Of a stretch of 34,698 nt of DNA, positions 14,596-34,698 are shown piece by piece (the first letter of the stretch is position 1; each line of letters opens with the position of its first letter). The stretch lies in IMG/VR virus record IMGVR_UViG_3300020159_001775, positions 1 to 34,698 of that record. One strand, written 5' to 3'. The notes beneath the pieces were generated by a model. That model was not told where the DNA came from, ran no database searches, and saw only the letters and a program-made list of their open reading frames with translations. The stretch is from a virus. Position numbers and translations under genes: made by a program.

Positions 14596-14931
14596 TTACA
14601 TCTTAGATTGTTTACGTTTGTAGAATGACATTACTGGGTTTCTCTTCTTAGAAACACCTGGTTCACCGCCTGCACCGCCGGTGCCAGCAATGTTGCCTGT
14701 GCCTACTGCATTTGTTGGTGCAGCACCCATTGCAACATCTTCTGATACTGATCTCCAACCGCCGCCCATCGATTTATATTTCTTTGATGCCCATGCATTT
14801 GCATAAGCAGAAGGATAAACAGCAAACTTGGATTTGGCAGCAGACTTAGCGCGAGCCCACTTTTCTGGGCTTGTTGGCTTATTTTTCTCTTCTAGATAAT
14901 TTTCTTCGATGAATTGCTTGAGTCTTTTCAT
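14596..14931 (-). CDS. Conserved phage protein with a KWARAKSAAK..YPSAYAN domain
   Basis: 111 residues. Residues about 19-60 (SPEKWARAKSAAKSKFAVYP, SAYANAWASKKYKSMGGGW) form a compact domain that I recall from many tailed phages, probably the one catalogued as DUF5872. It is followed by a Gly/Thr-rich linker (NAVGTGNIAGTGGAGGEPG) and a basic tail. It resembles the virion-associated small proteins of T4-like phages. The next gene upstream overlaps by four bases and has a similar general character. Confidence 0.7.
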   Translation of the reverse strand: MKRLKQFIEENYLEEKNKPTSPEKWARAKSAAKSKFAVYPSAYANAWASKKYKSMGGGWRSVSEDVAMGAAPTNAVGTGNIAGTGGAGGEPGVSKKRNPVMSFYKRKQSKM

Positions 14932-15272
14932 TTCTTTGTCCTGACAAATATTGGTTTGCCTCTGCGTTCTGGATTTGGATCTTCTCTGCGTTTTCTTTTT
15001 GCAGCCGATGCTCTACCTTCTTTTCCTAATGAATGTGCTTTGGCTGCTGGTAGACACTTTGGCTTTCCTTCACCAGGTTCTCTTGCACAATCACCTTTTA
15101 TATTGCCTTTTGTATCCATTCGAACCCATTTTTGTTTGAACCACTGTCTCAAATCTTCATTAACTTCTTCTTTTACACAACTACCTGGTGAATATGGCTT
15201 TTTACCGGGCACAGGTCTATGGCCTGGCCAGCATCTGCCTTTTTCGTCTAGGTATTGTTTGAATGTTTTCAT
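14928..15272 (-). CDS. Conserved basic phage protein with Gly/Pro/Cys motifs
   Basis: 114 residues. It has an N-terminal YLDEKGRCWPGHRPVPGKKP..SPGSC segment and a C-terminal KGDCAREPGEGKPKCLPAAK..RASAAKRKRREDPNPERRGK segment, each with two cysteines, so a zinc-binding pair is possible (C14/C32 and C62/C73 approximately). Highly basic. This pattern recurs in T4-like phage genomes from memory. Function is not known to me. It overlaps its neighbours by four bases on each side. Confidence 0.7.
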   Translation of the reverse strand: MKTFKQYLDEKGRCWPGHRPVPGKKPYSPGSCVKEEVNEDLRQWFKQKWVRMDTKGNIKGDCAREPGEGKPKCLPAAKAHSLGKEGRASAAKRKRREDPNPERRGKPIFVRTKK

Positions 15273-18204: not shown

Positions 18205-19140
18205 TTAGCAATTCCATTTGCGTAGTGACTTATTTATTCTAGAGTTTGGATCTTTTGCCGTTTTAGCAGAAGTCAAACGTTTCTTCATTCCCGACATTCT
18301 AGCACAAAAAGATTTGCGTCTATTTGCTGCTTTGGAACCTGGTTTTAGTTTTGATGGTTTAGTTGTGACAGCCATCGATAATTTTGATCCTGGGTTTGCA
18401 CGGCGATATGACATGATGCCTTTTTTGTTCAAACCGCCAGCTTCAGATTTACCTTCTTTGCGTTGCCATGCTGGTGTGGCTTCGTCCAATTCAACTTCTT
18501 CGCTGACCTTTTCATTTTTGCTTGACATGTAACCAGCAACAGTCTCCATGTAATCGGCAGCTAGAGTGACTTTAGATTGAACCCAACCAGGCAATTGCAT
18601 TTCTGGATCTTTTACTATGTCGCGCATCGTGCTAATTGAACGCTGAATCTGATCCAGTTGATTCATAACCATACTGCCTTCATCGTCAAGTTCTTTGCCC
18701 ATTGCGATTGCAACATGATTCTCTTCAACCCGTTCGACTTCTTCTTTAGATAAACGATCAATCGCCTTATTGAGGCCAGATTGTCGCTTCATTGCCATTT
18801 TATCATCTTTCAATCGTTCGGGGTCTTTTTCGGAACGATTTCCTGCTGAAAAAGAATGATAAGACACATCATCTGCTGCTTTTTTTGCATAAGAACTTAG
18901 TGTGGATTTTTTCAGTTCATCAATCTGTTCAACTTCTTCTTTCATGCTTTTTAGGTTTTCACATTGTGTCTTAAAGTGATTACTCTTTGCCATATGCAGT
19001 GCGTGGCCATCACGGTCACCCATCATTAAAGCAGCTTCAGCTTTCTCTTGGTGTTCGTCAGCCATTTCTTCGTGATGATCGATCTGTCTTTTCAGTTCGT
19101 CATTTTCTTTTTCTTTGGCAAAGTCTAGGAATGATTTCAT
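18205..19140 (-). CDS. Charged probable virion protein with conserved basic C-terminal domain
   Basis: 311 residues. The N-terminal helix (KRQIDHHEEMADEHQEKAEA) is followed by the KEEVEQIDELKKST element near 67-80, which is shared with the neighbour, and shorter echoes (KEEVERVEE, SEEVELDEATPAWQRKEG). The last ~90 residues (AWQRKEGKSEAGGLNKKG, RRKSFCARMSGMKKRLTSAK, PNSRINKSLRKWNC) form a basic domain that I recall from many phages and probably corresponds to DUF6321. Its role is unknown. It overlaps the upstream gene by four bases. Confidence 0.7.
   Translation of the reverse strand: MKSFLDFAKEKENDELKRQIDHHEEMADEHQEKAEAALMMGDRDGHALHMAKSNHFKTQCENLKSMKEEVEQIDELKKSTLSSYAKKAADDVSYHSFSAGNRSEKDPERLKDDKMAMKRQSGLNKAIDRLSKEEVERVEENHVAIAMGKELDDEGSMVMNQLDQIQRSISTMRDIVKDPEMQLPGWVQSKVTLAADYMETVAGYMSSKNEKVSEEVELDEATPAWQRKEGKSEAGGLNKKGIMSYRRANPGSKLSMAVTTKPSKLKPGSKAANRRKSFCARMSGMKKRLTSAKTAKDPNSRINKSLRKWNC
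18231..18238 (-). promoter_or_regulatory. Late-promoter-like AATAAATA
   Basis: AATAAATA on the minus strand, inside the 3' end of the 311-residue gene and 40 bases before the ATG of the 262-residue gene. It matches the NATAAATA late box and has a suitable distance, but intragenic A/T-rich matches can arise by chance. Confidence 0.35.
18908..18942 (-). repeat. 35-bp direct repeat, copy 2 (codes for EEVEQIDELKK)
   Basis: Exact copy of 17839-17873, about 1.07 kb away in the neighbouring gene and in the same coding frame. The length and identity exceed what a shared short peptide motif alone would require, which suggests recent duplication or gene conversion. Confidence 0.85.
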
Positions 19141-20999
19141 TTCTTTTTCTTTTTCTTTGAAATTGTTATACCAATATTGTCTTTTGGACTTTGAATTGGC
19201 TCTTTGTTTGTCGCACCGTTTAAAACACCAGCAACACCCATTTCATTGTCGCCTGGATCCATAAAAGACTCTTTTAGACGATTTCTAAAAGAAGCAAAAT
19301 TAGTTTCTTCTCTATACGTTACATCCCCCAGACCAGACATAGGATAAACTGTGCCTTGCTGGCGTGTATCGAATTCTGGACCGATGGTTGTAACGTTTCT
19401 GTGTCTGTAACTAGCAGTCGGAACATTAACCAGTCCCTTCTTCTTTACTTTTTCTTTGTCTTTGCTGAAGTTTGTTTCTTTTGGTTCTGGGAAGTCTTGG
19501 CGGGTTTGCGCGGAGTTTTCTTCGGTGTAGGTTCGGAAGATGTAACTACCGGTTCGCTTGTTGGCGTCCCACTTGATATTGTCGGCGTTGGGGTCTCCTG
19601 CACGATTGTCGGCTGGGATATCGTTTGGACCTGCGGCTCTTGAGCCTGAACCGGCTGATATTTTTGAATATCCAGTGGATGTTTTTCCGGTGTTGCGCTT
19701 GGACTTGTAATTCTCAAAAAATCTAGAATTTTTCTTAACATTTTCATCTTCCTTAAATAATAAACCATATGATTCTGCGATATTGATTTTACCGCGACTT
19801 TCCAACCAAGAGAACGCAATTTCATTATAATTTTTGTTCTCAATGAACCTATTTATTTTTTCGTAGGTGTCAGTAATATCTTCTTCGATTTCCTCAAGAG
19901 ATGAACTGTTGTTGAAATGAATGAAGTTTGAAAAGCTTTGTAAATAAGATTCCTTGCAATTCTGTGCAAGTTTCCACTTATCATGTCTGACAGATTCGGC
20001 AATCATCTTTGCCAGTTTTTCATTTCTCTCTTTGCTGGCTTCGTTTGTGGTGTCAACAAACACCATAGAAGTTTCATAACCCAATTCTTCTAGTTCTTCT
20101 TTGATTGTAAACATTCTGTTATGATCATCAGCAGGACCATTGATAATCAGTGGTCCACGATTGCGAATAGCTTCTCTGCGTTGATCACTAGTCTTCTCGG
20201 ATAACTTTTGTTTATCCATTAAAAGATCAAATGCCTGAACAGAATTAAGTTCGACAGTTTTACTTTCAGCAATTGCTTCACGGATGATGATATCTTTGCC
20301 TGAACCTGGACCACCAGTAACAAAGATAGCCTTGAACAGACCACGATTGAAATCTTCATTTAGACCTAAGCCTTTGCGAACATCACGGAACAACTCTCTC
20401 GCATGATTTTCTGGTACATGAGAAGGAATACCACTTTTGAATCCGGGTTTACTTTTGCCGTCTTTGTCAATATAATCATTGAAACGGTTATTCAGTGCAT
20501 GTTCTCTCATTTTTGATGCGGACATACCTTCTGCACCTTCTGAGTCTGGATCACGATGCCCAGCAGACTTAACTTCTATCTTCTTGAAGTTAAACAGCTT
20601 TCCTGGACCTTCTCCGTTGTATTGATTCAGTTTAGTTTCATATTCTGGAATACGATCCGATCCTGCAACCATAACTAAATGGTCATGGCCAGCAGCATGT
20701 AGTGCAGCTGCGTGTTGCAAGAAAGTTGGTTTTTCTTTACTTGAAGCTGATAAATTTGTATTTGGAAAGAATCTTTTTGCATGTTTGAGTTTTTTTGCAA
20801 CTTCTAAAGGATTCTTCTTTGCATCAACCGTGTGTGAAATTATAACATGGTGAGGTGCATTGTAATCTTTTGCAATATCTTTAACTCTTTGAACCAACTT
20901 CTCATGCCCAATGGTGGGAGGATTCATACGACCAAAAGCCATCACCACAGGACTATGTGTCTGTTCGTCTTCTTTAACTTTTTCTAAAAACTTTTTCAT
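19137..20999 (-). CDS. NadR-like fusion: nucleotidyltransferase plus P-loop kinase-like domain plus structural-type tail
   Basis: 620 residues in three parts. (1) About 15-170: HIGH-type nucleotidyltransferase with GRMNPPTIGH at 23-32 and MSASKMRE at 159-166, the counterpart of the ISSTxxR motif, as in NMN adenylyltransferases. (2) About 222-390: P-loop domain with FVTGGPGSGKD at 226-236 and MVFVDTTNEASKERN. The residue after the P-loop lysine is Asp instead of Ser/Thr. (3) About 420-620: Gly/Asn/Asp-rich tail ending in a Lys run, resembling T4-like virion proteins. The order of parts 1 and 2 is that of NadR (NAD salvage), but the P-loop part also resembles polynucleotide-kinase or zeta-type kinases. 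Overlaps both neighbours by four bases. Confidence 0.8.
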   Translation of the reverse strand: MKKFLEKVKEDEQTHSPVVMAFGRMNPPTIGHEKLVQRVKDIAKDYNAPHHVIISHTVDAKKNPLEVAKKLKHAKRFFPNTNLSASSKEKPTFLQHAAALHAAGHDHLVMVAGSDRIPEYETKLNQYNGEGPGKLFNFKKIEVKSAGHRDPDSEGAEGMSASKMREHALNNRFNDYIDKDGKSKPGFKSGIPSHVPENHARELFRDVRKGLGLNEDFNRGLFKAIFVTGGPGSGKDIIIREAIAESKTVELNSVQAFDLLMDKQKLSEKTSDQRREAIRNRGPLIINGPADDHNRMFTIKEELEELGYETSMVFVDTTNEASKERNEKLAKMIAESVRHDKWKLAQNCKESYLQSFSNFIHFNNSSSLEEIEEDITDTYEKINRFIENKNYNEIAFSWLESRGKINIAESYGLLFKEDENVKKNSRFFENYKSKRNTGKTSTGYSKISAGSGSRAAGPNDIPADNRAGDPNADNIKWDANKRTGSYIFRTYTEENSAQTRQDFPEPKETNFSKDKEKVKKKGLVNVPTASYRHRNVTTIGPEFDTRQQGTVYPMSGLGDVTYREETNFASFRNRLKESFMDPGDNEMGVAGVLNGATNKEPIQSPKDNIGITISKKKKKK

Positions 21000-22195
21000 A
21001 TGTTTCTAATTCCTGCAAAGTTTCTGCGGGAAAATTCTGCTCTGTTAACAAATTTATCGGAATCATTATCGTGATGGAAAACATAACCCTCTGGGTTTGC
21101 GGTTTCACCACCGTGTTCGTGTTGGAATTCTTGATGTTGATTTAAAACACCGATCAGTGCATTCTTTGCTGCCTGTAGATGTCCATGCATTTTGAATAGA
21201 TTGTTATAGTGTTTTCTATTTCTATCAATCTTATTCAGTTCATCTTTGAGTTCGTTTTGTTTTGCAACTTTATTCTTTTCAACTTTTAATTTTTCAACAT
21301 CTTTATTTTTCTTGGTTTCTAACCAGTTTTTAAAGTTTTCGTGATTGGGTTGTTCACCGGCGCGAACCGTATGATTCATATAGGTTTCTAGGTGACCGCC
21401 AACTCCGTGGTGAGCTTTTGTGCCTGCGTACATGTCATCACCATGTGTATCATGTACCGCTTGTGCAGCATTGATATGTTTCTGGAATTCTTTCTGTTCT
21501 TTCGGACCAAAGTGAACTTTTCCGGTGTCCATTCTTGGATCAACAGAGAATACATCTGAATGACCTGTAAAATTTTCGTGGTCAACTTCATGTGACGCAT
21601 TTAAATTCTTTGCATCTTTACCTTCATATTTGAGGTGTGTGACAACACCAATTTTCGCCTTATCAACAGCTTTCTTATGAACGCCGTGGGCTGTATATGT
21701 CAAACCTGAAGGATTGGGATTGAAAGAGGTTCCACCATCTCCACTCTTCTTCTTATCTTCGGCCGAGAACATCATATCGCCTTGGTAAACACCTTCTTTC
21801 GGTGCAACTTTAGGTAAGTGTTTTAACGCATCCTTTAGTTTTGAAACTAGACCAGGTGCATGACCGTGGTTCTTCATAATGTCTGCGGGTGTGTAGTTGA
21901 TCTTAGGTGTCTTATTGAATGCAGACTTTGATGCAACGAAAAACTTTCCGTTATCTGGATGGTGCCCATAGACTAGGGCTGGAGAACCATCATATTTTGT
22001 AGTCAGTTCGGAAGTCTTTTTACCTTGTTTAGTGTGTTCAGCTGCAGCCATTAGAGATTTTATTGCGCGCTTTGCACCCTTTTCACCAGTCTGTAATGGG
22101 CGATCTTCAACGTGCGTCAAATGTTTAATCTGACGGCTCGCACCTTCTTCTTCAGGCTCCACCTGTTCTCTAATATATGACTTGAAAGATTTCAT
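20996..22195 (-). CDS. Ligase-like covalent-nucleotidyltransferase family protein (DUF6267-like)
   Basis: 399 residues. From memory this matches a T4-like phage family catalogued as DUF6267. I see the marks of the DNA/RNA ligase adenylation fold: motif I KYDG at 67-70 (nucleotidyl lysine K67), a motif III-like VYQGDMMFS at 136-144, motif IV EGYVF at 369-373, and a motif V-like KFVNRAEF starting at K381. A Lys-rich helical insertion (about 290-345) lies between motifs III and IV. If active, it would form a lysine-AMP and join or cap nucleic-acid ends. The downstream kinase-like fusion is translationally coupled (ATGA). First gene behind the tandem promoters at 22239-22279. Confidence 0.7.
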   Translation of the reverse strand: MKSFKSYIREQVEPEEEGASRQIKHLTHVEDRPLQTGEKGAKRAIKSLMAAAEHTKQGKKTSELTTKYDGSPALVYGHHPDNGKFFVASKSAFNKTPKINYTPADIMKNHGHAPGLVSKLKDALKHLPKVAPKEGVYQGDMMFSAEDKKKSGDGGTSFNPNPSGLTYTAHGVHKKAVDKAKIGVVTHLKYEGKDAKNLNASHEVDHENFTGHSDVFSVDPRMDTGKVHFGPKEQKEFQKHINAAQAVHDTHGDDMYAGTKAHHGVGGHLETYMNHTVRAGEQPNHENFKNWLETKKNKDVEKLKVEKNKVAKQNELKDELNKIDRNRKHYNNLFKMHGHLQAAKNALIGVLNQHQEFQHEHGGETANPEGYVFHHDNDSDKFVNRAEFSRRNFAGIRNI

Positions 22196-22238
22196 TAATA
22201 CGCCTTTGAATGCAACACACTTTGGTTGCCCGTGGAGT

Positions 22239-22246
22239 TATTTATA
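22239..22246 (-). promoter_or_regulatory. T4-type late promoter TATAAATA
   Basis: Perfect match to the T4 late-promoter octamer on the minus strand, 43 bases upstream of the ligase-like gene's ATG at 22195, in non-coding DNA. The leader also contains a small GCAAC/GTTGC hairpin (22212-22229). It would drive the virion block 22195-15695 late in infection. Confidence 0.75.
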
Positions 22247-22250
22247 ATGG

Positions 22251-22279
22251 ATTATACCACACACCAACAAATTTGTCAA
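22251..22279 (-). promoter_or_regulatory. Consensus sigma70 promoter in tandem with the late promoter
   Basis: TTGACA (22279-22274) and TATAAT (22256-22251) are both perfect, with an optimal 17-base spacer, in the gap between the glycosylation operon and the ligase-like gene. The late TATAAATA box begins four bases downstream of the -10, so the same genes could be expressed both early and late. Confidence 0.75.
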
Positions 22280-22302: not shown

Positions 22303-23004
22303 TCAATAATGTTCGATTTTCCCGTTACCTGCAAGCCAACCCCAACAATTTATTTTCTCATATTCGACCAAATATTGTTTTGGTATATTTACAAAGTGTG
22401 CGTGTTCAGTATCTGCAAGCCCATTGGATAATAATCTTAAATTCTCTTGTATTACTGATAAATAAGTGTCTATTAAAGATGGGCACATAGACCACATTCT
22501 GGTGATTAATAGGTGGTCTGCACCAAACTTAACATCGCCAGTCCAGGTTGGTATTCTTTTCTTGAAAACAAACTTACCAAAAGTATTGTCATAATCTTTA
22601 ATATTAAAAGAATCTTCAAGTTGTGATCTTGCAGAGAATTTAAATATACGATTAACTGAAGACAACATCTTATTTAAATCGGTATTAGATTTAATAGTTG
22701 CAAGTGTTGCAAGCATTAAACAGTTTTCACCATGACTTTTCAAACCATTAACTGCACAGTATCTGGTGTTTGATTCTTCACTTAAGTCGATATAGTAGTT
22801 GGAGAGACCAGCCAAAGTTTCTTTTTCTAGTTGTGAAACCTGCCTAACTGAAATATCTGCAAATAAAATGATGGCTTCAGGTACCTTTTCACGCACAGAT
22901 TTAAGTGTTGAAACGGTTTGTGCAAATCTATCATTATCATTAAAAACACCCATTGCAGGCTTTAATGATGAAGTTATGATGAATAAAGGTGTATTAGGTA
23001 TCAT
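22303..23004 (-). CDS. Unknown protein of the glycosylation operon, possibly glycosyltransferase-like
   Basis: 233 residues. It starts with a strand (PLFIITSSLKPAMGVF) and has a TLKSVREKVPEAIILFADIS segment, as at the front of a Rossmann-like or GT-A fold. A 'VNRIFKFSARSQLEDSFNIK' segment resembles the 'sugar-transferase-like' proteins found in viral glycan loci, but I cannot place it in a family. It ends NCWGWLAGNGKIEHY. It overlaps the NTP-transferase/HAD gene by four bases and is the last gene of the operon. Confidence 0.6.
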   Translation of the reverse strand: MIPNTPLFIITSSLKPAMGVFNDNDRFAQTVSTLKSVREKVPEAIILFADISVRQVSQLEKETLAGLSNYYIDLSEESNTRYCAVNGLKSHGENCLMLATLATIKSNTDLNKMLSSVNRIFKFSARSQLEDSFNIKDYDNTFGKFVFKKRIPTWTGDVKFGADHLLITRMWSMCPSLIDTYLSVIQENLRLLSNGLADTEHAHFVNIPKQYLVEYEKINCWGWLAGNGKIEHY

Positions 23005-24026
23005 AGATAGTGGCTTAAATTATCAGAGTCTCTATAAAGATTAATTGCTTCAGCTCTAGGATAAGGATTCGATTCGTTGAAATCGTTGATCAATATTCTA
23101 GATGAATTCTGTAACCCACAAATCAAATTGAAACTCTTGAAACCAAGTCTATATAACATTTCTCTGGTTTGTGATGTATACTTGTTCTCTCTTGCGGAAG
23201 TAAAAATGAATTGAGAACCAGACTCCTGCATTTTCAGTAGACGTTCCAAATTGTTTTTCAATGGCACTTCTGGCACACCAGATTCCAGATCCAGTCTCGA
23301 CTGTGCTTTGATGATTGTGCCATCAATATCACAGAAGATGACTGGTTTGTTATTGTGTTCAAACCAGTCTTGTGCGGTACCAACATCAACATAGTTTGTC
23401 ACCATCTTTTCGGTGAAGACCATCTTATTGTTGATGCACCGTGATATTACATCAGAAACAAAAACTTCCCGACTGGTTTCTATCTGTTCAAATGCATTCT
23501 TATACATCTTCGCAGAGAAGAACTTATACCCACCAACACAGAATGTATCGGAGACAACCTGTTTTTCAATAATGTCAGTGATTATACCATTTTCATTCGA
23601 GACGGTGAAGCTCTTTGATGCAAGTTTCTTCAAGACTTCATGTTCGGAGATTTTTGAAACACAAACATAGTTGCCATCAGAAAAATCATGGTCAAAGTAA
23701 CTGTCACAGTCTTTGATGAATATTTCTTCACTATCCAAATTCGAAGCCCTTATGATTTGATATACAGTATCGGCAGGACCCTTGGTTGGTTTATCGATGA
23801 TGACACAATTGATATTATCCGGGCACTCATGTCTGATTTGTTCGCGAACATTGTATTTCTCTTCATGTTCTTTGAGAATGCCTATATGAATCTTGTATCC
23901 TTTTTGTATGAAAGGTCTTAGTGCATTTATCAACATCATATCGTGTTTGTAATCATACAACAGATACTTCGGTTTCATATTTGGGAATCTGGTTGACAGA
24001 CCAGCTGCAGGTACAATTATTTCCAT
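23001..24026 (-). CDS. Sugar/choline-phosphate nucleotidyltransferase fused to HAD phosphatase
   Basis: 341 residues. Residues 1-220 form an NTP-transferase domain: AAGLSTRF..MKPK at 7-20 (nucleotide-binding loop), KDCDSYFD at 105-112 (metal-binding aspartates) and YVDVGTAQDW near the end. Residues about 226-341 form a HAD phosphatase: CDIDGTI at 232-238, FTSAREN, and LINDFNESNPYPRAEAINLY. The N-terminal half resembles LicC/RmlA-type enzymes that activate phosphocholine or sugar phosphates with CTP or another NTP. With the adjacent LicA-like kinase this would make an activated phospho-group donor for the transferases upstream. The substrate is unknown. Confidence 0.82.
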   Translation of the reverse strand: MEIIVPAAGLSTRFPNMKPKYLLYDYKHDMMLINALRPFIQKGYKIHIGILKEHEEKYNVREQIRHECPDNINCVIIDKPTKGPADTVYQIIRASNLDSEEIFIKDCDSYFDHDFSDGNYVCVSKISEHEVLKKLASKSFTVSNENGIITDIIEKQVVSDTFCVGGYKFFSAKMYKNAFEQIETSREVFVSDVISRCINNKMVFTEKMVTNYVDVGTAQDWFEHNNKPVIFCDIDGTIIKAQSRLDLESGVPEVPLKNNLERLLKMQESGSQFIFTSARENKYTSQTREMLYRLGFKSFNLICGLQNSSRILINDFNESNPYPRAEAINLYRDSDNLSHYL

Positions 24027-24760
24027 AGTCTTTTAATCTCTCTCAAAATAAATTCACGTTCAAAGTCACCACTCTTAGTATGTAGATACACTCTCAACAA
24101 CATCAATATCAACAAGTTATCGTTGAAAGCCAAAGGGAAAAGTTTTCTTAGTTTATCTTGTATGTTTTGTAATTTGATATCCAGTCGAACGTCAGTCTTC
24201 CGTAAGAACCATTTACATTCTAGATCCTGACGCATCTTTGCAATATCGAAAATGTAAGAATCATATTCTACAGACACAGCATCGATCATGCAGAACTTTG
24301 ACTTGGCATAGATGATGTTTTCCAATGTCAGATCACCATGATATGTCGAACTAGGTAACTCTTTTGGTAGTTTCTCAATCAATTGATCTTTGGTGAATGG
24401 CAATTCTTCGTTGTCTTTCAACCAATCAAGTTTCTTATCATAAACACCAGAATAATCTTTGTTGACAGAAAGTTTTGCGAAAAAACTGAATGTCTCTATT
24501 ATGAAGTCTTCTAATTTTGTGGTTGTATTATGAATTAGATAGTTTTTCATATCTAACCCATGAATATACTCCATGTCAATTAGGTTGTCTTCAGAATGAT
24601 ATATTCTCGGCACATTATAACCTGCGCCATGAAGTGATGTTAACCTTTCCAGGTTTCTTTCAATATTATTGACTTTTCTTACAAACAATCCTTGAGCATT
24701 TTCCATCAAGTATATTTTGCTACCAGAATGTCCAGAAAATTCCTTTACTGTTTTATCCAT
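24017..24760 (-). CDS. Choline-kinase/aminoglycoside-phosphotransferase (LicA-like) family kinase
   Basis: 247 residues. The phosphotransferase active site is intact: HGDLTLEN at 141-148 (catalytic D143, metal-binding N148) and MIDAVS with D160 as the second metal ligand, followed by DSYIFDIAKM. The N-terminal lobe has SGSKIYLMEN and VRKV, consistent with ATP binding. It phosphorylates a small hydroxyl compound; choline, ethanolamine or a sugar are possible. It overlaps the NTP-transferase/HAD gene by ten bases and the upstream glycosyltransferase-like gene by 16 bases, so the two enzymes are likely one pathway. Confidence 0.85.
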   Translation of the reverse strand: MDKTVKEFSGHSGSKIYLMENAQGLFVRKVNNIERNLERLTSLHGAGYNVPRIYHSEDNLIDMEYIHGLDMKNYLIHNTTTKLEDFIIETFSFFAKLSVNKDYSGVYDKKLDWLKDNEELPFTKDQLIEKLPKELPSSTYHGDLTLENIIYAKSKFCMIDAVSVEYDSYIFDIAKMRQDLECKWFLRKTDVRLDIKLQNIQDKLRKLFPLAFNDNLLILMLLRVYLHTKSGDFEREFILREIKRLWK

Positions 24761-25422
24761 TGTTCGTAATCATCCCGAATCAATGAATGCCATGTTCCGT
24801 TGTGTGCGCCAGGCGGAAAAGGATTTTGCATATTAACATACACAAGATTTTCACCATGAAGATTATGTTTGTGTAGATTAGCTCGCATCAAGTCTTCACC
24901 GATGAATTGATTGCCACCATTATAGTATTCATCAATGTTTTCATAGGTCGACATATACTTCATCATATTATCTTTTGACGAGAATGCGAACTGATCATTA
25001 CCAAAGTCTCTTGTTGGTACCATTCTGCAATTGGGTATATACAGTTTACTGTTGTCCAAATCCGAAAAAGGAATTTTGACATTCAATGCATAATCTGTGC
25101 GTGAACGGATGATCCAATCGTAATCACCAAAGATTAATTTTCTGCATTCATTCATCGAATAGAACATTCGATATGTAAACCTTGGAGGATACTTCTCCGC
25201 GTTTGGAGTGTTTGTATACTTGCTGTCGTAATCAACTAATGGTGGAATTTCGAATTGATAAGTTTTTGGCCTATAAAGTTCCAAAAGCTTTCTTTCATCG
25301 TGGAATTTCCAGCCATGAATATACACATCTACATCGTAATGATCTAATAGATTGCGTTTGTAATATTCATAACCTTTTTCAAATGATCTGGCTTGCCCAG
25401 AAAAACATAATGCAATTTTCAT
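24745..25422 (-). CDS. Glycosyltransferase-like protein (SGQxRS/TF family), copy 2
   Basis: 225 residues beginning MKIALCFSGQARSFEKGYEY, with DVDVYIHGW, YDWIIRSRTDYAL (possible D-x-D region) and an N-terminal strand typical of a GT-A fold. The same architecture is seen in the next gene upstream (LSGQYRTF..LDVYCHLW..YCRYDI), so these are diverged tandem paralogues. The family is found in viral and bacterial glycan loci. Acceptor and donor are unknown. Overlaps of 16 and four bases with neighbours indicate coupled translation. Confidence 0.7.
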   Translation of the reverse strand: MKIALCFSGQARSFEKGYEYYKRNLLDHYDVDVYIHGWKFHDERKLLELYRPKTYQFEIPPLVDYDSKYTNTPNAEKYPPRFTYRMFYSMNECRKLIFGDYDWIIRSRTDYALNVKIPFSDLDNSKLYIPNCRMVPTRDFGNDQFAFSSKDNMMKYMSTYENIDEYYNGGNQFIGEDLMRANLHKHNLHGENLVYVNMQNPFPPGAHNGTWHSLIRDDYEQWIKQ

Positions 25423-26108
25423 CTTTGTATTGATACAGTCAGTTGATCGGTTGTGACACCACGTAGTTTGTTCATGTATATATTACGCAACAACATCATG
25501 TGTGGGCAATATCTATCTTCTTTATGTATTCTGATATTCTCTTCGCCGTATTTGCGATCATATCTTAGATGATCTTCAAACTCTTTTTCGAAAGGTGTCA
25601 TATGCAATCTCTCATATACGTCATATAGAAAATAGTGTTTCGCATAAGAGAACGGCATGATTGCAAAGATATCAGAAATTAGATTGTAAGACTCTTCGAA
25701 AGGAGTGATCAACATATCAACATCTTTGAAATCGAATAGTTGACCAAACTTGATATCATATCTACAATACACTAGTGTATCATATTCATCGTCAATTAAA
25801 TCGAAAGCCTTCTTGCGACTATAATTCATCGATGCGTTACCTGCAATTTTATCTTGATTTGGATTTTTAGGATTCATAGTACGAATCCTTCTTTCCATCA
25901 TTTCGAATTCTTCTTTGTGAACCTCATAGTTCTCAAGTTTTATTCTTACAGGATTCAGTCTCTCAATTACATTGTTGAATTCATCTTGACTGTCCGACCA
26001 AAGGTGACAATAAACATCCAGTTGATTTAAATCAATAAATCTTTTGATGTTTTCCCATGTTTGGTCAAATGTTCTATATTGACCAGATAAAACTATACAA
26101 TTTTTCAT
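25419..26108 (-). CDS. Glycosyltransferase-like protein (SGQxRS/TF family), copy 1
   Basis: 229 residues from the ATG at 26108, which overlaps the methyltransferase stop by four bases (ATGA); a longer frame from 26123 is less likely. It has NCIVLSGQYRTFDQTW, LDVYCHLWSDS and TLVYCRYDIKFG, in the same order as the downstream paralogue. The C-terminal part is rich in acidic and aromatic residues (EKEFEDHLRYDRKYGEENI). Likely to transfer a sugar as part of the operon's pathway, but no specific activity can be named. Confidence 0.7.
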   Translation of the reverse strand: MKNCIVLSGQYRTFDQTWENIKRFIDLNQLDVYCHLWSDSQDEFNNVIERLNPVRIKLENYEVHKEEFEMMERRIRTMNPKNPNQDKIAGNASMNYSRKKAFDLIDDEYDTLVYCRYDIKFGQLFDFKDVDMLITPFEESYNLISDIFAIMPFSYAKHYFLYDVYERLHMTPFEKEFEDHLRYDRKYGEENIRIHKEDRYCPHMMLLRNIYMNKLRGVTTDQLTVSIQR

Positions 26109-26674
26109 TTGATCCAGTACCAAACATCACACTCTGTAAAGTGAATTTCTCTTCCTACTTTGACAGCAAATTCATCGGCAGCTTGACGAACACCAGTAAT
26201 AGCATTGTAATCGTGTCCAGCAAAGATACCACCAGTCTTCAATTTAGAATAGAAGTTTGCACAATCTTTTGTCAGTTGTTCGTAGGTGTGTAGACCATCA
26301 ATAAAGATAACATCGAAAGAATCATCCAACACTTGATCTACAACATTGTCAGAGTAATCCCTCAACAGACCAAAACGATTGCTGTAACCCATCAAACGGT
26401 TCATAAACCTTTGATAGATTGCTTCGCGTTCATTTAGATTGTTTCCGTTCCAATCAACATAGTTCGTATATGGATCTACACCAGTCAATACACAATTTGG
26501 ATTACTGTCGAGTAAAAATTGTGTGGTGTCACCAATGTCACATCCGATTTCCAATACTCTAGGATGAGACATTTCTTTGATCATTGCACCTAGCCCATAA
26601 CCAGAACATTTAAATGCAGAAGATGGGGGTGTGAAAGCTTGTGTTTCGGTGTTAAATGTAATAATATCGCTCAT
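26105..26674 (-). CDS. Class I SAM-dependent methyltransferase
   Basis: 189 residues. Motif I appears as RVLEIGCDIGDTTQFL (about 39-54) and the acidic end of strand 2 as LTGVDPYT. A later FDVIFIDGLHTYEQLTKDC with GGIFAGHDY is the signature of the Methyltransf_24 type seen in glycan and small-molecule loci. It probably O-methylates a sugar or other intermediate. It shares one base with the upstream gene and four with the downstream gene. Confidence 0.85.
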   Translation of the reverse strand: MSDIITFNTETQAFTPPSSAFKCSGYGLGAMIKEMSHPRVLEIGCDIGDTTQFLLDSNPNCVLTGVDPYTNYVDWNGNNLNEREAIYQRFMNRLMGYSNRFGLLRDYSDNVVDQVLDDSFDVIFIDGLHTYEQLTKDCANFYSKLKTGGIFAGHDYNAITGVRQAADEFAVKVGREIHFTECDVWYWIK

Positions 26675-27531
26675 TATATAGTCCTGTATTTAAAAAATTG
26701 AGATTCATCTTCCTGATTGTATTTTTCCATCACGAACTTTTTCCATTCTGGAACACGATCATATTGATGCACGATTGGGAAAACATATTGGTCGGATGTA
26801 TATACTACACCATCTCTAAAGACTGGTTCATAACAGAGAAGATTTGGTCTGAAATAATCAATCTTTGAAGGGTCAGCAACAGTACCAGCTTCACAAGCCC
26901 AATTGTCAGTGGTATGTACAACATCTTTAAATGGTTGTGTATTAACTAATACATTGAATACTGCTTGGTCACAAATAGGAATTGGCCTGTTGATTGCGTT
27001 TGTAAAGATATTGAACACCATATCTTTAACATACTCTGATGTACCACCAAAAGTTCCTACATTGTAAATCGTATTGTTCTTGAATTGTTCGTAGACATAA
27101 GGACCATAAGATTGTTTAAGATTGTCATCACCCCAAGGTTCATCTTTGTAACGTAGACCTTCAGATGCAATGATTAACTTAAACAAAGATCCTGGCGTGA
27201 TAACAGACTCCATGTAAGCAAAAGGTGTATATTGGAAGTAAACATCTTTTACATCCGTTGTAACAACGAATTTGTACTTTGCCCAATTATGTCTCAGGTA
27301 TTCATAGATCGATAGAAATCGTAGGACATGAATTGGCACATCATCGACTTGTTTCATTGGAAAAATAATCACACCTTGATTCTTTAACCAATCGATTGTC
27401 TGTACAGATGTTTTTCCAGTCACCAGAACAACCTCATTATCACCAGAAACTTCTTTTGCTGACAACACCCAAGGTTTTAACTGATTGATATCGTAATTAG
27501 TAAAACCACCAATAATTAAATTTTTCGCCAC
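26674..27531 (-). CDS. Glycosyltransferase-like protein (GT-A type)
   Basis: 285 residues. It begins LIIGGFTNYDINQLKPWVLSAKE, has EVVLVTGKTS and then FVVTTDVKDVYFQ, a D-x-x-D segment in the place of the GT-A metal-binding motif, followed by YNVGTFGGTSEYVKDM and CDQAVFNVL, as in several sugar transferases that read a 'found/received' GGxxxV loop. I am fairly sure of the fold, not of the family. It overlaps the GT2 gene by 16 bases. Confidence 0.72.
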   Translation of the reverse strand: MAKNLIIGGFTNYDINQLKPWVLSAKEVSGDNEVVLVTGKTSVQTIDWLKNQGVIIFPMKQVDDVPIHVLRFLSIYEYLRHNWAKYKFVVTTDVKDVYFQYTPFAYMESVITPGSLFKLIIASEGLRYKDEPWGDDNLKQSYGPYVYEQFKNNTIYNVGTFGGTSEYVKDMVFNIFTNAINRPIPICDQAVFNVLVNTQPFKDVVHTTDNWACEAGTVADPSKIDYFRPNLLCYEPVFRDGVVYTSDQYVFPIVHQYDRVPEWKKFVMEKYNQEDESQFFKYRTI

Positions 27532-28226
27532 GGAAATTCTCCATTATATTTTTCATTCATCACTTTATTACCATTTAAGAAGAAGTCAGCATTAACAGAA
27601 CCAGCATTACCATCAACACGATAGTTGACAGTATACTTTCCTGTACAATCGAATTTTGGAAAATGTTGTGATAACACATTCAACCAAACACGATCTTGAC
27701 CCCATCCCCCATGCCAAACTTGTGCTAATTTTATCGCAACTTCAGTTTTTATGCAATAGCAATTTGTATCTATATGATTAACACCATGATATGTTTGCCA
27801 CTTACCTAAAGATTCACAGTCATCATTACATATGTATTGCCCATCTTTTGTACATACCTTTCGGAGTGAATAGGACCAGTCCAGGTTGTTTTGTTCGATT
27901 GTTTTGATGCAGTTCTGTATATGATCTGGTTCAAACCAACAGTCTTGATCCAGGTAAACGACATACTTGGTATCGATTAGGTGGGTGAAAGCTGCATAGA
28001 CTCTATGTCCGTAGAATCCATTGGCACCAACGTTAAGTGGTAAGAAACAACGTTCTAGATTTTTTCGATCCAAAAAATCATCGGTGATTATCCTGGTTTT
28101 TGAATGATATTTTGGGCCATCAGCAACAACATAACATTTTGTATCATAAGATTGATTCAGTACGCTACGAATAGCATCTTTCAACTCTGGTGCACCAGTA
28201 GTTGGCATAATCACAGTCACACTCAT
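27516..28226 (-). CDS. Family 2 glycosyltransferase
   Basis: 236 residues, GT2 fold: VTVIMPTTGAPELKDAIRSV and LNQSYDTKCYVVADGP at the N-terminus, VVYLDQDCWFEPDHI with the metal-binding D-Q-D near 92-96, and HGGWGQDRVWLNVL as the likely acceptor or catalytic region. It is the first gene of the glycan operon in transcription order, following the 94-residue gene by three bases. Single domain, no membrane segment. Donor and acceptor unknown. Confidence 0.85.
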   Translation of the reverse strand: MSVTVIMPTTGAPELKDAIRSVLNQSYDTKCYVVADGPKYHSKTRIITDDFLDRKNLERCFLPLNVGANGFYGHRVYAAFTHLIDTKYVVYLDQDCWFEPDHIQNCIKTIEQNNLDWSYSLRKVCTKDGQYICNDDCESLGKWQTYHGVNHIDTNCYCIKTEVAIKLAQVWHGGWGQDRVWLNVLSQHFPKFDCTGKYTVNYRVDGNAGSVNADFFLNGNKVMNEKYNGEFPWRKI

Positions 28227-33491: not shown

Positions 33492-34698
33492 TCAACTGAA
33501 GAAGTCTTCCAAAGAATTATTCTTCTCAACTTTCCATTTCATACAATCCAAAATCACACGAATTGGTTCCAAAAATGCTTTGTCAAATTGTACATCATAA
33601 TCAATAAACCTGTCAAGTTCAAACTCTTTTGGTATTCTGGAAGGGAAAGAAATGACGGTATCTTTAAAATGATTCGGCATCTTGAGATAGGTGAATTTGA
33701 TTTTCTCACCTTCTTGGATCTTCTGATACTTCTTTTCCAGACCCATCAACTTGAGGTTGTGGTTGTATAGAATGGCACCTTTAACATGAATTGGTGTACC
33801 TTTCTTATATAGTGTAACTGAATCAGAATAGGTGTTCAATCCATTAAGCCCTCGCGGAAAAGATATCTCTTCTGGTGGTAATCTTTTAAACTCTTCTCTG
33901 AAATTGGCAATAAAGTTTTGAACATCATTCTCAGTACCAGTCATCATCAACTTGATTGCATCTTTCATCTTCTCACGGATTGCCGATGGAGTGGATGACT
34001 TGATCATTTCCAGACCCATGACTTTCATCTGTGGTTCTTTATATTGAACACCTTCGTTATTGTAGACGTTTAGGATGTAACGCTTCTTGGCAGTCCAGAC
34101 ACCTTTGTTGGACAAACCTTCGCGTTTCATTTGCATCTTTTGTGAATATGCCTTAACATAGTCAGCAAGTTCTCCATAAGACTTGTCAATGAACGGTTGA
34201 ATCTTATCCTCACAAACTTTATCCATGAAGGATATCGTCCTGTTAATATCTTTACTTCTGTCCCCCATCGCATGTTGCACCAGAGGTCCAAGATTGAGAT
34301 AGATCGAGTCAGTATCTGATGCAATGACATAATCAACACTTTCTGTTTTAAGAATCTTGTTCATGTATTCGTTGACCTTGTTTTCGATCCAACGAATGGA
34401 TAATTGACCTGCTGTCGTAACACCAAGTGCCATACGCAAGTCATAGAAGCGGAAGTATTGTGAACCCAACGCACCATAAGCAGAGTTCAAAGATACTTTC
34501 TTTGCAAGTTGCAGGTTATTGTAACGTGCAATGCGTTTTTCGATATCATACTTCTTCGAATCGTCCGTTTCGTTTTCATATTCCTGTTTCGCAGCCAACA
34601 TCATCTTCTTGAATTTGCTACGATCAACATACATTTCTTCCATCATCTTAGGCAAAAAGCCTTGCCGTTCTGTGGTAAAAAACTGTCCGTTTGGTGTC
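33492..34698 (-). CDS. 43: DNA polymerase, T4 gp43 (family B), C-terminal part
   Basis: The frame is open to the right edge (TPNGQFFTTERQGFLPKMME...), so the N-terminal and exonuclease parts lie outside the window. Visible are the polymerase motif B (KKVSLNSAYGALGS) and motif C (DTDSIYL), the palm and thumb parts, and a C-terminal NSLEDFFS, which resembles the sliding-clamp-binding peptide at the end of T4 gp43. It is transcribed ahead of uvsX. There is no sign of an intein or split within the visible part. Confidence 0.96.
   Translation of the reverse strand, partial: TPNGQFFTTERQGFLPKMMEEMYVDRSKFKKMMLAAKQEYENETDDSKKYDIEKRIARYNNLQLAKKVSLNSAYGALGSQYFRFYDLRMALGVTTAGQLSIRWIENKVNEYMNKILKTESVDYVIASDTDSIYLNLGPLVQHAMGDRSKDINRTISFMDKVCEDKIQPFIDKSYGELADYVKAYSQKMQMKREGLSNKGVWTAKKRYILNVYNNEGVQYKEPQMKVMGLEMIKSSTPSAIREKMKDAIKLMMTGTENDVQNFIANFREEFKRLPPEEISFPRGLNGLNTYSDSVTLYKKGTPIHVKGAILYNHNLKLMGLEKKYQKIQEGEKIKFTYLKMPNHFKDTVISFPSRIPKEFELDRFIDYDVQFDKAFLEPIRVILDCMKWKVEKNNSLEDFFS

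What the first reader, a model, noticed from the sequence alone, without database searches (positions are those of the whole stretch)
19137..22195. Coupled ligase-like and nucleotidyltransferase/P-loop genes: a possible nucleic-acid-end or NAD-related repair pair
The 399-residue protein has the order of motifs expected of a covalent nucleotidyltransferase (KYDG 67-70, QGDMM 138-142, EGYVF 369-373, KFVNRAEF from 381). The next gene, linked by an ATGA overlap, fuses an NMNAT-type domain (TIGH, SASKMR) to a P-loop kinase-like domain. Kinase plus ligase is the minimum set for RNA or DNA end repair, as in T4 Pnkp and Rnl1. NMNAT plus kinase is the set for NAD salvage (NadR), and NAD could feed a ligase. 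Both genes stand in the virion block behind a dual promoter, so the proteins may even be packaged.
Basis: partly seen in the sequence, partly recalled or inferred. Interest (0 to 1): 0.7.

Follow-up and report, generated by a model that had tools for sequence, protein, structure and literature searches.

The report
Capsid-targeted ligase-fold protein with nucleotidyltransferase partner
A widespread but unnamed gene family of T4-like marine and freshwater phages looks like a very distant relative of DNA/RNA ligases, is tied (often by gene fusion) to an NMNAT-like enzyme, and in this phage lineage both proteins carry the kind of N-terminal tag that T4 uses to load proteins into its head, so they may be injected into the host with the DNA.

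Summary
Gene A (22195..20996, 399 aa) is Pfam DUF6267, function unknown. Its ligase-like motifs are real: K67, D69, G70, D140, E369, G370, V372, K381 and R385 are invariant across the diverse family alignments. Two confident AlphaFold models (the window protein and a compact relative) retrieve DNA/RNA ligases as the best PDB matches, although no match reaches E < 1e-3. I read it as a new, very divergent branch of the covalent nucleotidyltransferase superfamily without OB domain; enzymatic activity is untested. Gene B (20999..19137) begins with a HIGH-superfamily (NMNAT/cytidylyltransferase-like) domain. In relatives the two are neighbours or are fused, in both orders and with different HIGH families. 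Gene B's P-loop domain has lost hallmark kinase residues in this lineage, so the 'kinase plus ligase' argument is weak here, though relatives keep an intact kinase. New here: genes A and B and their neighbour start with a T4-style capsid-targeting-like peptide (T4 IPIII MKTYQEFIAEA; here MKSFKSYIREQ) behind a conserved late promoter. Homologous cytidylyltransferases found by others in three cyanophage virions carry the same peptide. Substrate (nucleic-acid ends, NAD/NMN, or other) is not settled.

The parts
22251..22279 (-). sigma-70-type promoter TTGACA-17-TATAAT with extended -10 (TG)
   Evidence: 12/12 consensus match; recognisable in 28 of 78 close relatives
22239..22246 (-). T4-type late promoter TATAAATA upstream of gene A
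   Evidence: invariant in 26 of 26 aligned leaders that have it, present in 55 of 78 close relatives
22212..22229 (-). conserved leader hairpin GCAAC-CAAAGTGT-GTTGC, function unknown
   Evidence: 16-nt core exactly conserved in 55 close relatives and in L183, one mismatch in L179-L181; closing pair covaries GC/AU
20996..22195 (-). gene A, 399 aa, DUF6267: ligase-fold covalent-nucleotidyltransferase candidate with capsid-targeting-like N-terminus MKSFKSYIREQ
   Evidence: Pfam DUF6267 E 6e-91; alignments; AlphaFold pLDDT 90; Foldseek
19137..20999 (-). gene B, 620 aa: HIGH-superfamily nucleotidyltransferase (about aa 14-219), P-loop domain (about 223-400), low-complexity tail; capsid-targeting-like start MKKFLEKVKEDE
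   Evidence: phrog_3041 E 6e-59, phrog_395 E 2e-38; TIGR00125 sub-threshold; P-loop GGPGSGKD
18205..19140 (-). gene C, 311 aa, C-terminal DUF6321 domain, start MKSFLDFAKEKE: probable co-packaged protein
   Evidence: Pfam DUF6321 E 1e-16; N-terminus; its alignment matches that of gene A best at the first 12 residues
15695..16384 (-). head-protein homologue downstream in the same cluster
   Evidence: phrog_613 head protein E 7e-10
14928..15272 (-). small ORF starting MKTFKQYLDEKG (capsid-targeting-like)
14596..14931 (-). small ORF starting MKRLKQFIEENYLE (capsid-targeting-like)

Best explanation
Genes A and B make a two-protein enzyme set that is expressed late, loaded into the prohead through short N-terminal capsid-targeting peptides, trimmed by the phage prohead protease, and injected with the DNA. 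Protein A is a divergent ligase-fold enzyme: K67 takes up AMP (from ATP or NAD+) as a lysyl-AMP, with D140, E369 and K381 as active-site partners, and passes the nucleotide to a 5'-phosphate. The most likely target is a nucleic-acid end, which it then seals. Protein B's HIGH-type domain does the matching soluble chemistry (NMN + ATP to NAD+ or a similar dinucleotide), either supplying or regenerating the adenylate donor or restoring NAD+ drained by host defence. Supported here by computation: the motifs, the fold assignment at superfamily level, the linkage and fusions, the late promoter, the N-terminal peptides. Inferred: packaging of protein A itself, cleavage, injection, catalysis and the target.
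For: Invariant ligase motifs in order. Strands carry motifs I, III, IIIa, IV and V in ligase order in two confident models. Foldseek puts ligases first for both models, across archaeal and human DNA ligases, T4 Rnl2, Naegleria Rnl, trypanosome REL1 and LigA. The best local profile match to both Rnl1 and Rnl2 by the compact family is at motif IV, running into V for Rnl1 (Rnl1 also 82). Of 65 representatives at 65% identity, 46 of the 56 with enough downstream sequence have a HIGH-type gene downstream or fused. Fusions occur in both orders and with different HIGH families: S-PM2 and L186; L212, L221 and L195; L225, L219 and L215. Capsid-targeting-like start in 70 of 312 DUF6267 proteins against 31 of 2179 other ORFs and 0 of 105 uvsX/gp41/primase. 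Virion-detected cytidylyltransferases of S-SM1 (PMC3037559), S-SCSM1 (PMC9602691) and S-CREM2 (PMC10665884) start MKKFSAFLNEAE, MKSFLQFLKEAA and MKNFSSFLTEAD (140, 98, 63), like T4 IPII/IPIII MKTYQEFIAEA. Conserved late promoter.
Against: No PDB fold match reaches E < 1e-3, and profile-profile scores against Rnl1/Rnl2 do not clearly exceed the decoys. Motif III has Asp where ligases have Glu, and there is no OB domain or motif VI. In S-SM1, S-SCSM1 and S-CREM2 the DUF6267 protein lacks the targeting peptide; in S-SCSM1 and S-CREM2 it is not marked as a virion protein. CsCl-purified particles can carry abundant non-virion proteins, as the authors themselves note. The counts of targeting-like starts come from related sequences, and the motif was modelled on T4 IPII/IPIII.
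Confidence: 0.45

Rival explanations
1. RNA/DNA end repair like T4 Pnkp plus Rnl1: protein A seals ends, the P-loop domain phosphorylates 5'-OH ends, and the HIGH-type domain is accessory.
For: Relatives keep an intact zeta-toxin/AAA_33-type kinase next to or fused with the HIGH-type gene (HTVC008M E 3e-13). L215 carries a HAD stretch with a weak match to the polynucleotide-kinase family phrog_415 in the same protein as DUF6267. Motif IV-V of DUF6267 aligns to Rnl1.
Against: In the window lineage the kinase has GKD instead of GKS/T and V/I in place of the NSD Asp. Only 8 of 65 representatives had a detectable P-loop relative in the fetched stretch, whereas the HIGH domain is near-universal; a pure kinase-ligase pathway does not explain that.
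Confidence: 0.25
2. NAD+ salvage or anti-NADase set carried in the virion: protein B is NadR-like (NMNAT followed by a P-loop kinase) and protein A processes NAD+, NMN or an immune signal rather than nucleic acid.
For: HIGH-type domains of different families, some matching phrog_3462 nicotinamide-nucleotide adenylyltransferase, are fused to DUF6267. Protein B has the NadR domain order. Phages are known to rebuild NAD+ with NadM/NadR/NadV (PMC9503650).
Against: Not a NadR by curated model (TIGR01526 not matched by protein B; one relative far below cut-off). NMNAT-specific PDB matches are insignificant. No NadV or other clear NAD gene was seen among the window genes that were scanned.
Confidence: 0.25
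3. Protein A has the ligase fold but is a non-catalytic internal head or DNA-binding protein.
For: Large helical insert; very basic tail on protein B; in the tagged lineages it has the N-terminus of a head internal protein.
Against: The catalytic-type residues are exactly the invariant ones, which is not expected of a purely structural protein.
Confidence: 0.12
4. The ligase resemblance is accidental and DUF6267 has an unrelated fold.
For: No Foldseek match at E < 1e-3; no significant profile match.
Against: Two models of different length both rank ligases first across several distinct ligase families, and the motifs sit on the expected strands.
Confidence: 0.12

Closest known systems
Pfam PF19782 DUF6267 / phrog_455 / cyanophage T4-GC 71
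   Same: Gene A is a member (E 6e-91 and 3e-80); same place between the gp41 region and the nrd genes as in S-SM1
   Different: No function assigned so far; the window lineage adds a capsid-targeting-like N-terminus that many cyanophage members lack
T4 RNA ligase 1 (RnlA, gp63) and RNA ligase 2 (gp24.1)
   Same: KxDG[S/A], downstream S/T-K element, EGYV followed about 12 residues later by Lys; no OB domain (the last point for T4 ligases is from general knowledge)
   Different: No significant sequence-profile match; Asp in motif III; long helical insert between motifs IIIa and IV; none of the T4 C-terminal domains
Cyanophage virion cytidylyltransferase/NMNAT (T4-GC190; S-SCSM1 ORF91, S-CREM2 gp154, S-SM1 gp190)
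   Same: The HIGH-type domain of protein B is homologous (36% over 204 aa to S-SCSM1 ORF91); same N-terminal peptide type
   Different: Protein B adds a P-loop domain and a low-complexity tail
T4 internal proteins IPII/IPIII and their capsid-targeting sequence
   Same: N-terminus M-K-x-F/Y-x-x-F/Y-L/I-x-E
   Different: No similarity beyond the first ~10 residues; packaging and cleavage not shown for this phage
NadR (NMNAT plus P-loop ribosylnicotinamide kinase)
   Same: Domain order of protein B
   Different: Curated NadR model not matched; kinase residues changed

Membership tests
DUF6267 (PF19782) | full-length match to the curated model above its cut-off | tested here: met
   306 bits against a cut-off of 27, residues 24-394
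Covalent nucleotidyltransferase (DNA/RNA ligase, capping) superfamily | motif I KxDG, motif IV EGxV and motif V Lys in order, conserved | tested here: met
Covalent nucleotidyltransferase (DNA/RNA ligase, capping) superfamily | acidic residue in motif III | tested here: met
   invariant D140 (Asp rather than Glu)
Covalent nucleotidyltransferase (DNA/RNA ligase, capping) superfamily | ligase-type nucleotidyltransferase fold | tested here: inconclusive
   ligases rank first for two models, best E 0.038 and 0.06, none < 1e-3
Covalent nucleotidyltransferase (DNA/RNA ligase, capping) superfamily | lysyl-nucleotide intermediate | not testable with these tools
   needs purified protein
DNA ligase / mRNA capping enzyme | C-terminal OB domain with motif VI | tested here: not met
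   protein ends about 18 residues after motif V; no further domain in the model
T4 RNA ligase 1 family (PF09511) | significant profile match | tested here: not met
   1 of 53 members at E 0.017, the window protein none; hhalign not significant
HIGH-superfamily nucleotidyltransferase (PF01467 / TIGR00125) | match to the family model and GRxNPPTxGH ... SxSxxR motifs | tested here: met
   motifs conserved; relatives above the PF01467 cut-off; the window protein itself only below cut-off for TIGR00125, but phrog_3041/395 at E 6e-59/2e-38
NadR / NMNAT | curated NadR model or demonstrated NMN adenylylation | tested here: not met
   TIGR01526 not matched by protein B; one relative E 0.0046 at 16 bits against 341 needed; activity not testable
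P-loop kinase of zeta-toxin/PNK type | Walker A GKS/T and catalytic-type Asp (NSD) | tested here: not met
   GGPGSGKD and NSV/NSI in the window lineage; met in HTVC008M and other relatives
T4-type internal (capsid-targeted) protein | about 10-aa N-terminal targeting sequence of IPII/IPIII type | tested here: met
T4-type internal (capsid-targeted) protein | present in virions and cleaved by the prohead protease | not testable with these tools
   published for homologous cytidylyltransferases (PMC3037559, PMC9602691, PMC10665884: presence only), not for DUF6267

The most novel reading that the evidence does not exclude
DUF6267 is an injected NAD+-using ligase or nucleotidyltransferase whose by-product NMN is turned back into NAD+ by the neighbouring or fused HIGH-type enzyme. 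That would be a self-recycling repair or counter-defence machine carried inside the virion by many T4-like phages.
Probability: 0.15. Interest if true: 0.85.

Novelty: new variant of a known kind. Interest (0 to 1): 0.6.

Why it matters
DUF6267 occurs in over 460 phage records, mostly marine cyanophages, and has no function. Placing it in the ligase superfamily, tied to the cytidylyltransferase/NMNAT repeatedly found in virions but never explained, gives a concrete, testable enzyme hypothesis. The capsid-targeting-like peptide gives a simple way to predict which proteins T4-like phages of uncultured bacteria inject, and it can be checked against existing proteomes.

Tried and rejected
phmmer and profile searches of the PDB with DUF6267: only chance matches. 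hhalign against Rnl1 and Rnl2 with decoy families: correct motif register for Rnl1 and, with the compact family, Rnl2 (112), but not significant. NMNAT profile against the PDB: only insignificant matches to PPAT, archaeal NMNAT and NadR. Query with the divergent Vibrio phage member found no environmental relatives. Suspected that S-SCSM1 virion protein ORF89 was DUF6267: rejected by HMM; DUF6267 is ORF257, not marked as virion. Idea that the targeting motif marks virion proteins in general: in the S-SCSM1 genes checked only 1 of 27 virion proteins has it, and 0 of 77 others, so it is rare and not a general mark of virion proteins. PADLOC hit PbeC on gene A covers only the helical insert and is disregarded. 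Literature searches for DUF6267/PF19782/T4-GC 71 found nothing.

Full report
WHAT IS THERE. The window is a 34.7-kb IMG/VR virus fragment with T4-like replication genes (DNA polymerase C-terminal part, UvsX, gp41-type helicase, primase, ThyX, NrdA/B). No near DNA match exists among sequenced phages for its first 25 kb. Gene A (22195..20996) and gene B (20999..19137) overlap by ATGA and are followed, again by ATGA, by gene C (19140..18205).

GENE A. It is Pfam DUF6267, function unknown (E 6e-91), equal to phrog_455 and to cyanophage cluster T4-GC 71. 461 phage records hold a relative at E 1e-5. I collected several hundred relatives. Invariant residues in the 53-member alignment include H25, H28, E30, K67, D69, G70, K90, Q138, D140, H187, N274, K344, E369, G370, V372, K381 and R385. 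These include the motif I, III, IV and V positions of covalent nucleotidyltransferases. K90 sits where ligases have motif Ia (this last point is general knowledge). Among 392 complete members, 389 have KxDG[SAT]P and 387 have EG[FYL]V.

FOLD. AlphaFold of the window protein gave pLDDT 90.3, pTM 0.87. The strands carrying motifs I, III, IIIa, IV and V follow in ligase order, with a helical bundle (about 231-351) inserted between IIIa and IV. Foldseek against the PDB gave no match below E 1e-3, but the first two hits are an archaeal DNA ligase (6wbo, E 0.06, prob 0.66) and fungal tRNA ligase Trl1, and many more ligases follow. To test this without the big insert I modelled a compact member (L428, 297 aa, pLDDT 93.3, pTM 0.88). 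Its first 18 PDB hits are all DNA or RNA ligases or a ligase complex, including T4 Rnl2, Naegleria Rnl, trypanosome REL1 and human LIG1, best E 0.038; these are partly repeats of the same proteins. Profile comparison with the T4 Rnl1 family and, for the compact family, Rnl2 aligned motif IV (into V for Rnl1) but did not reach significance against decoys. I conclude remote membership in the superfamily as likely, not proven. The protein has no OB domain or motif VI, so it is not a standard DNA ligase or capping enzyme.

GENE B AND THE LINK. Residues about 14-219 are a HIGH-superfamily nucleotidyltransferase (motifs; relatives above the PF01467 cut-off). NMNAT specificity is not shown. Among 65 representatives of DUF6267, 46 carry such a gene downstream or fused, 10 have at least 2.5 kb downstream without one, and 9 have too little sequence to tell. 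Fusions: S-PM2 (591 aa) and L186 with the same family; L212, L221 and L195 with a C-terminal HIGH domain, L212 and L221 matching phrog_3462 nicotinamide-nucleotide adenylyltransferase; L225, L219 and L215 with the HIGH domain in front. L215 also has a HAD stretch with a weak match to the polynucleotide-kinase family phrog_415. Repeated fusion to different HIGH domains in both orders argues for a shared pathway.

THE P-LOOP. In the close relatives with a readable site the Walker A reads GGPGSGKD (72 of 72), and in those printed the usual NSD is NSV or NSI. In HTVC008M and other lineages it is GKS/T with NSD, and the HTVC008M gene matches Zeta_toxin/AAA_33 well above cut-off. A caution from general knowledge: GKD occurs in some active P-loop kinases, so loss of activity is not proven.

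PACKAGING. T4 loads internal proteins by a ~10-aa N-terminal capsid targeting sequence that is cut off by the head protease (PMC7697877, PMC3012670). T4 IPII and IPIII start MKTYQEFIAEA. Gene A starts MKSFKSYIREQ, gene B MKKFLEKVKEDE, gene C MKSFLDFAKEKE, and two small ORFs downstream MKTFKQYLDEKG and MKRLKQFIEENY. In close relatives of gene A the spacing F-x-x-F/Y-L/I-x-E is kept while the other residues vary. Strict matches: 70 of 312 DUF6267, 16 of 59 gene C relatives, 14 of 197 HIGH-type proteins, 31 of 2179 other ORFs, 0 of 105 replication proteins; sequences are related, so these are not independent counts. Gene B's own start is a looser match. Many cyanophage DUF6267 lack the peptide and start directly at the domain. 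Published virion proteomes report the cytidylyltransferase in S-SM1 (T4-GC190, PMC3037559), S-SCSM1 (PMC9602691) and S-CREM2 (PMC10665884); all three start with the peptide. In S-SCSM1 and S-CREM2 the DUF6267 lacks the peptide and is not marked as a virion protein. So packaging of protein B's family has outside support; packaging of protein A in the tagged lineages is a prediction.

PROMOTER AND LEADER. A perfect sigma-70 promoter and TATAAATA precede gene A. TATAAATA as such is no rarer or commoner in the window than chance; the evidence is its fixed place: it is at -48 to -57 in 55 of 78 close relatives and invariant in the aligned leaders. About nine bases on lies [G/A]CAACCAAAGTGTGTTG[C/T], exactly conserved in 55 close relatives with a covarying closing pair; Rfam has no match and the fold is not more stable than shuffles.

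INTERPRETATION. Best reading: an injected ligase-fold nucleotidyltransferase acting in one pathway with a HIGH-type adenylyltransferase. Whether the target is a nucleic-acid end, NAD+/NMN, or both cannot be decided from sequence. The novelty lies in the assignment of DUF6267, the repeated fusions, and the link to the targeting peptide; parts (virion cytidylyltransferase, capsid targeting in T4) are known.

Noticed in passing
22212-22229 (-): Leader hairpin [G/A]CAACCAAAGTGTGTTG[C/T] just after the late promoter, far more conserved than the gene behind it, covarying closing pair, no Rfam match.
   Followed up: partly
22303-28226 (-): Insert between helicase and gene A: NTP-transferase/HAD, APH/RIO-like kinase, glycosyltransferase- and methyltransferase-like genes, possibly for surface glycan modification.
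   Followed up: no
33492-34655 (-): 387-aa ORF matching only the C-terminal part of family-B DNA polymerase; phrog_1918 (382 positions) matches it nearly end to end, so the polymerase gene may be split, or the contig edge cuts it.
   Followed up: no
L085:3700-4998, L482:7459-8790, L083:3197-4927: Genes upstream of DUF6267 or the NMNAT in other phages share a D...(V/I)SLKK-like pattern (possible nuclease-type core); S-SCSM1 ORF90 of this kind is annotated as a virion protein.
   Followed up: partly
L215:4036-7164: 1043-aa protein joining a HIGH-type nucleotidyltransferase, a HAD/polynucleotide-phosphatase-like stretch and DUF6267 in one chain.
   Followed up: partly
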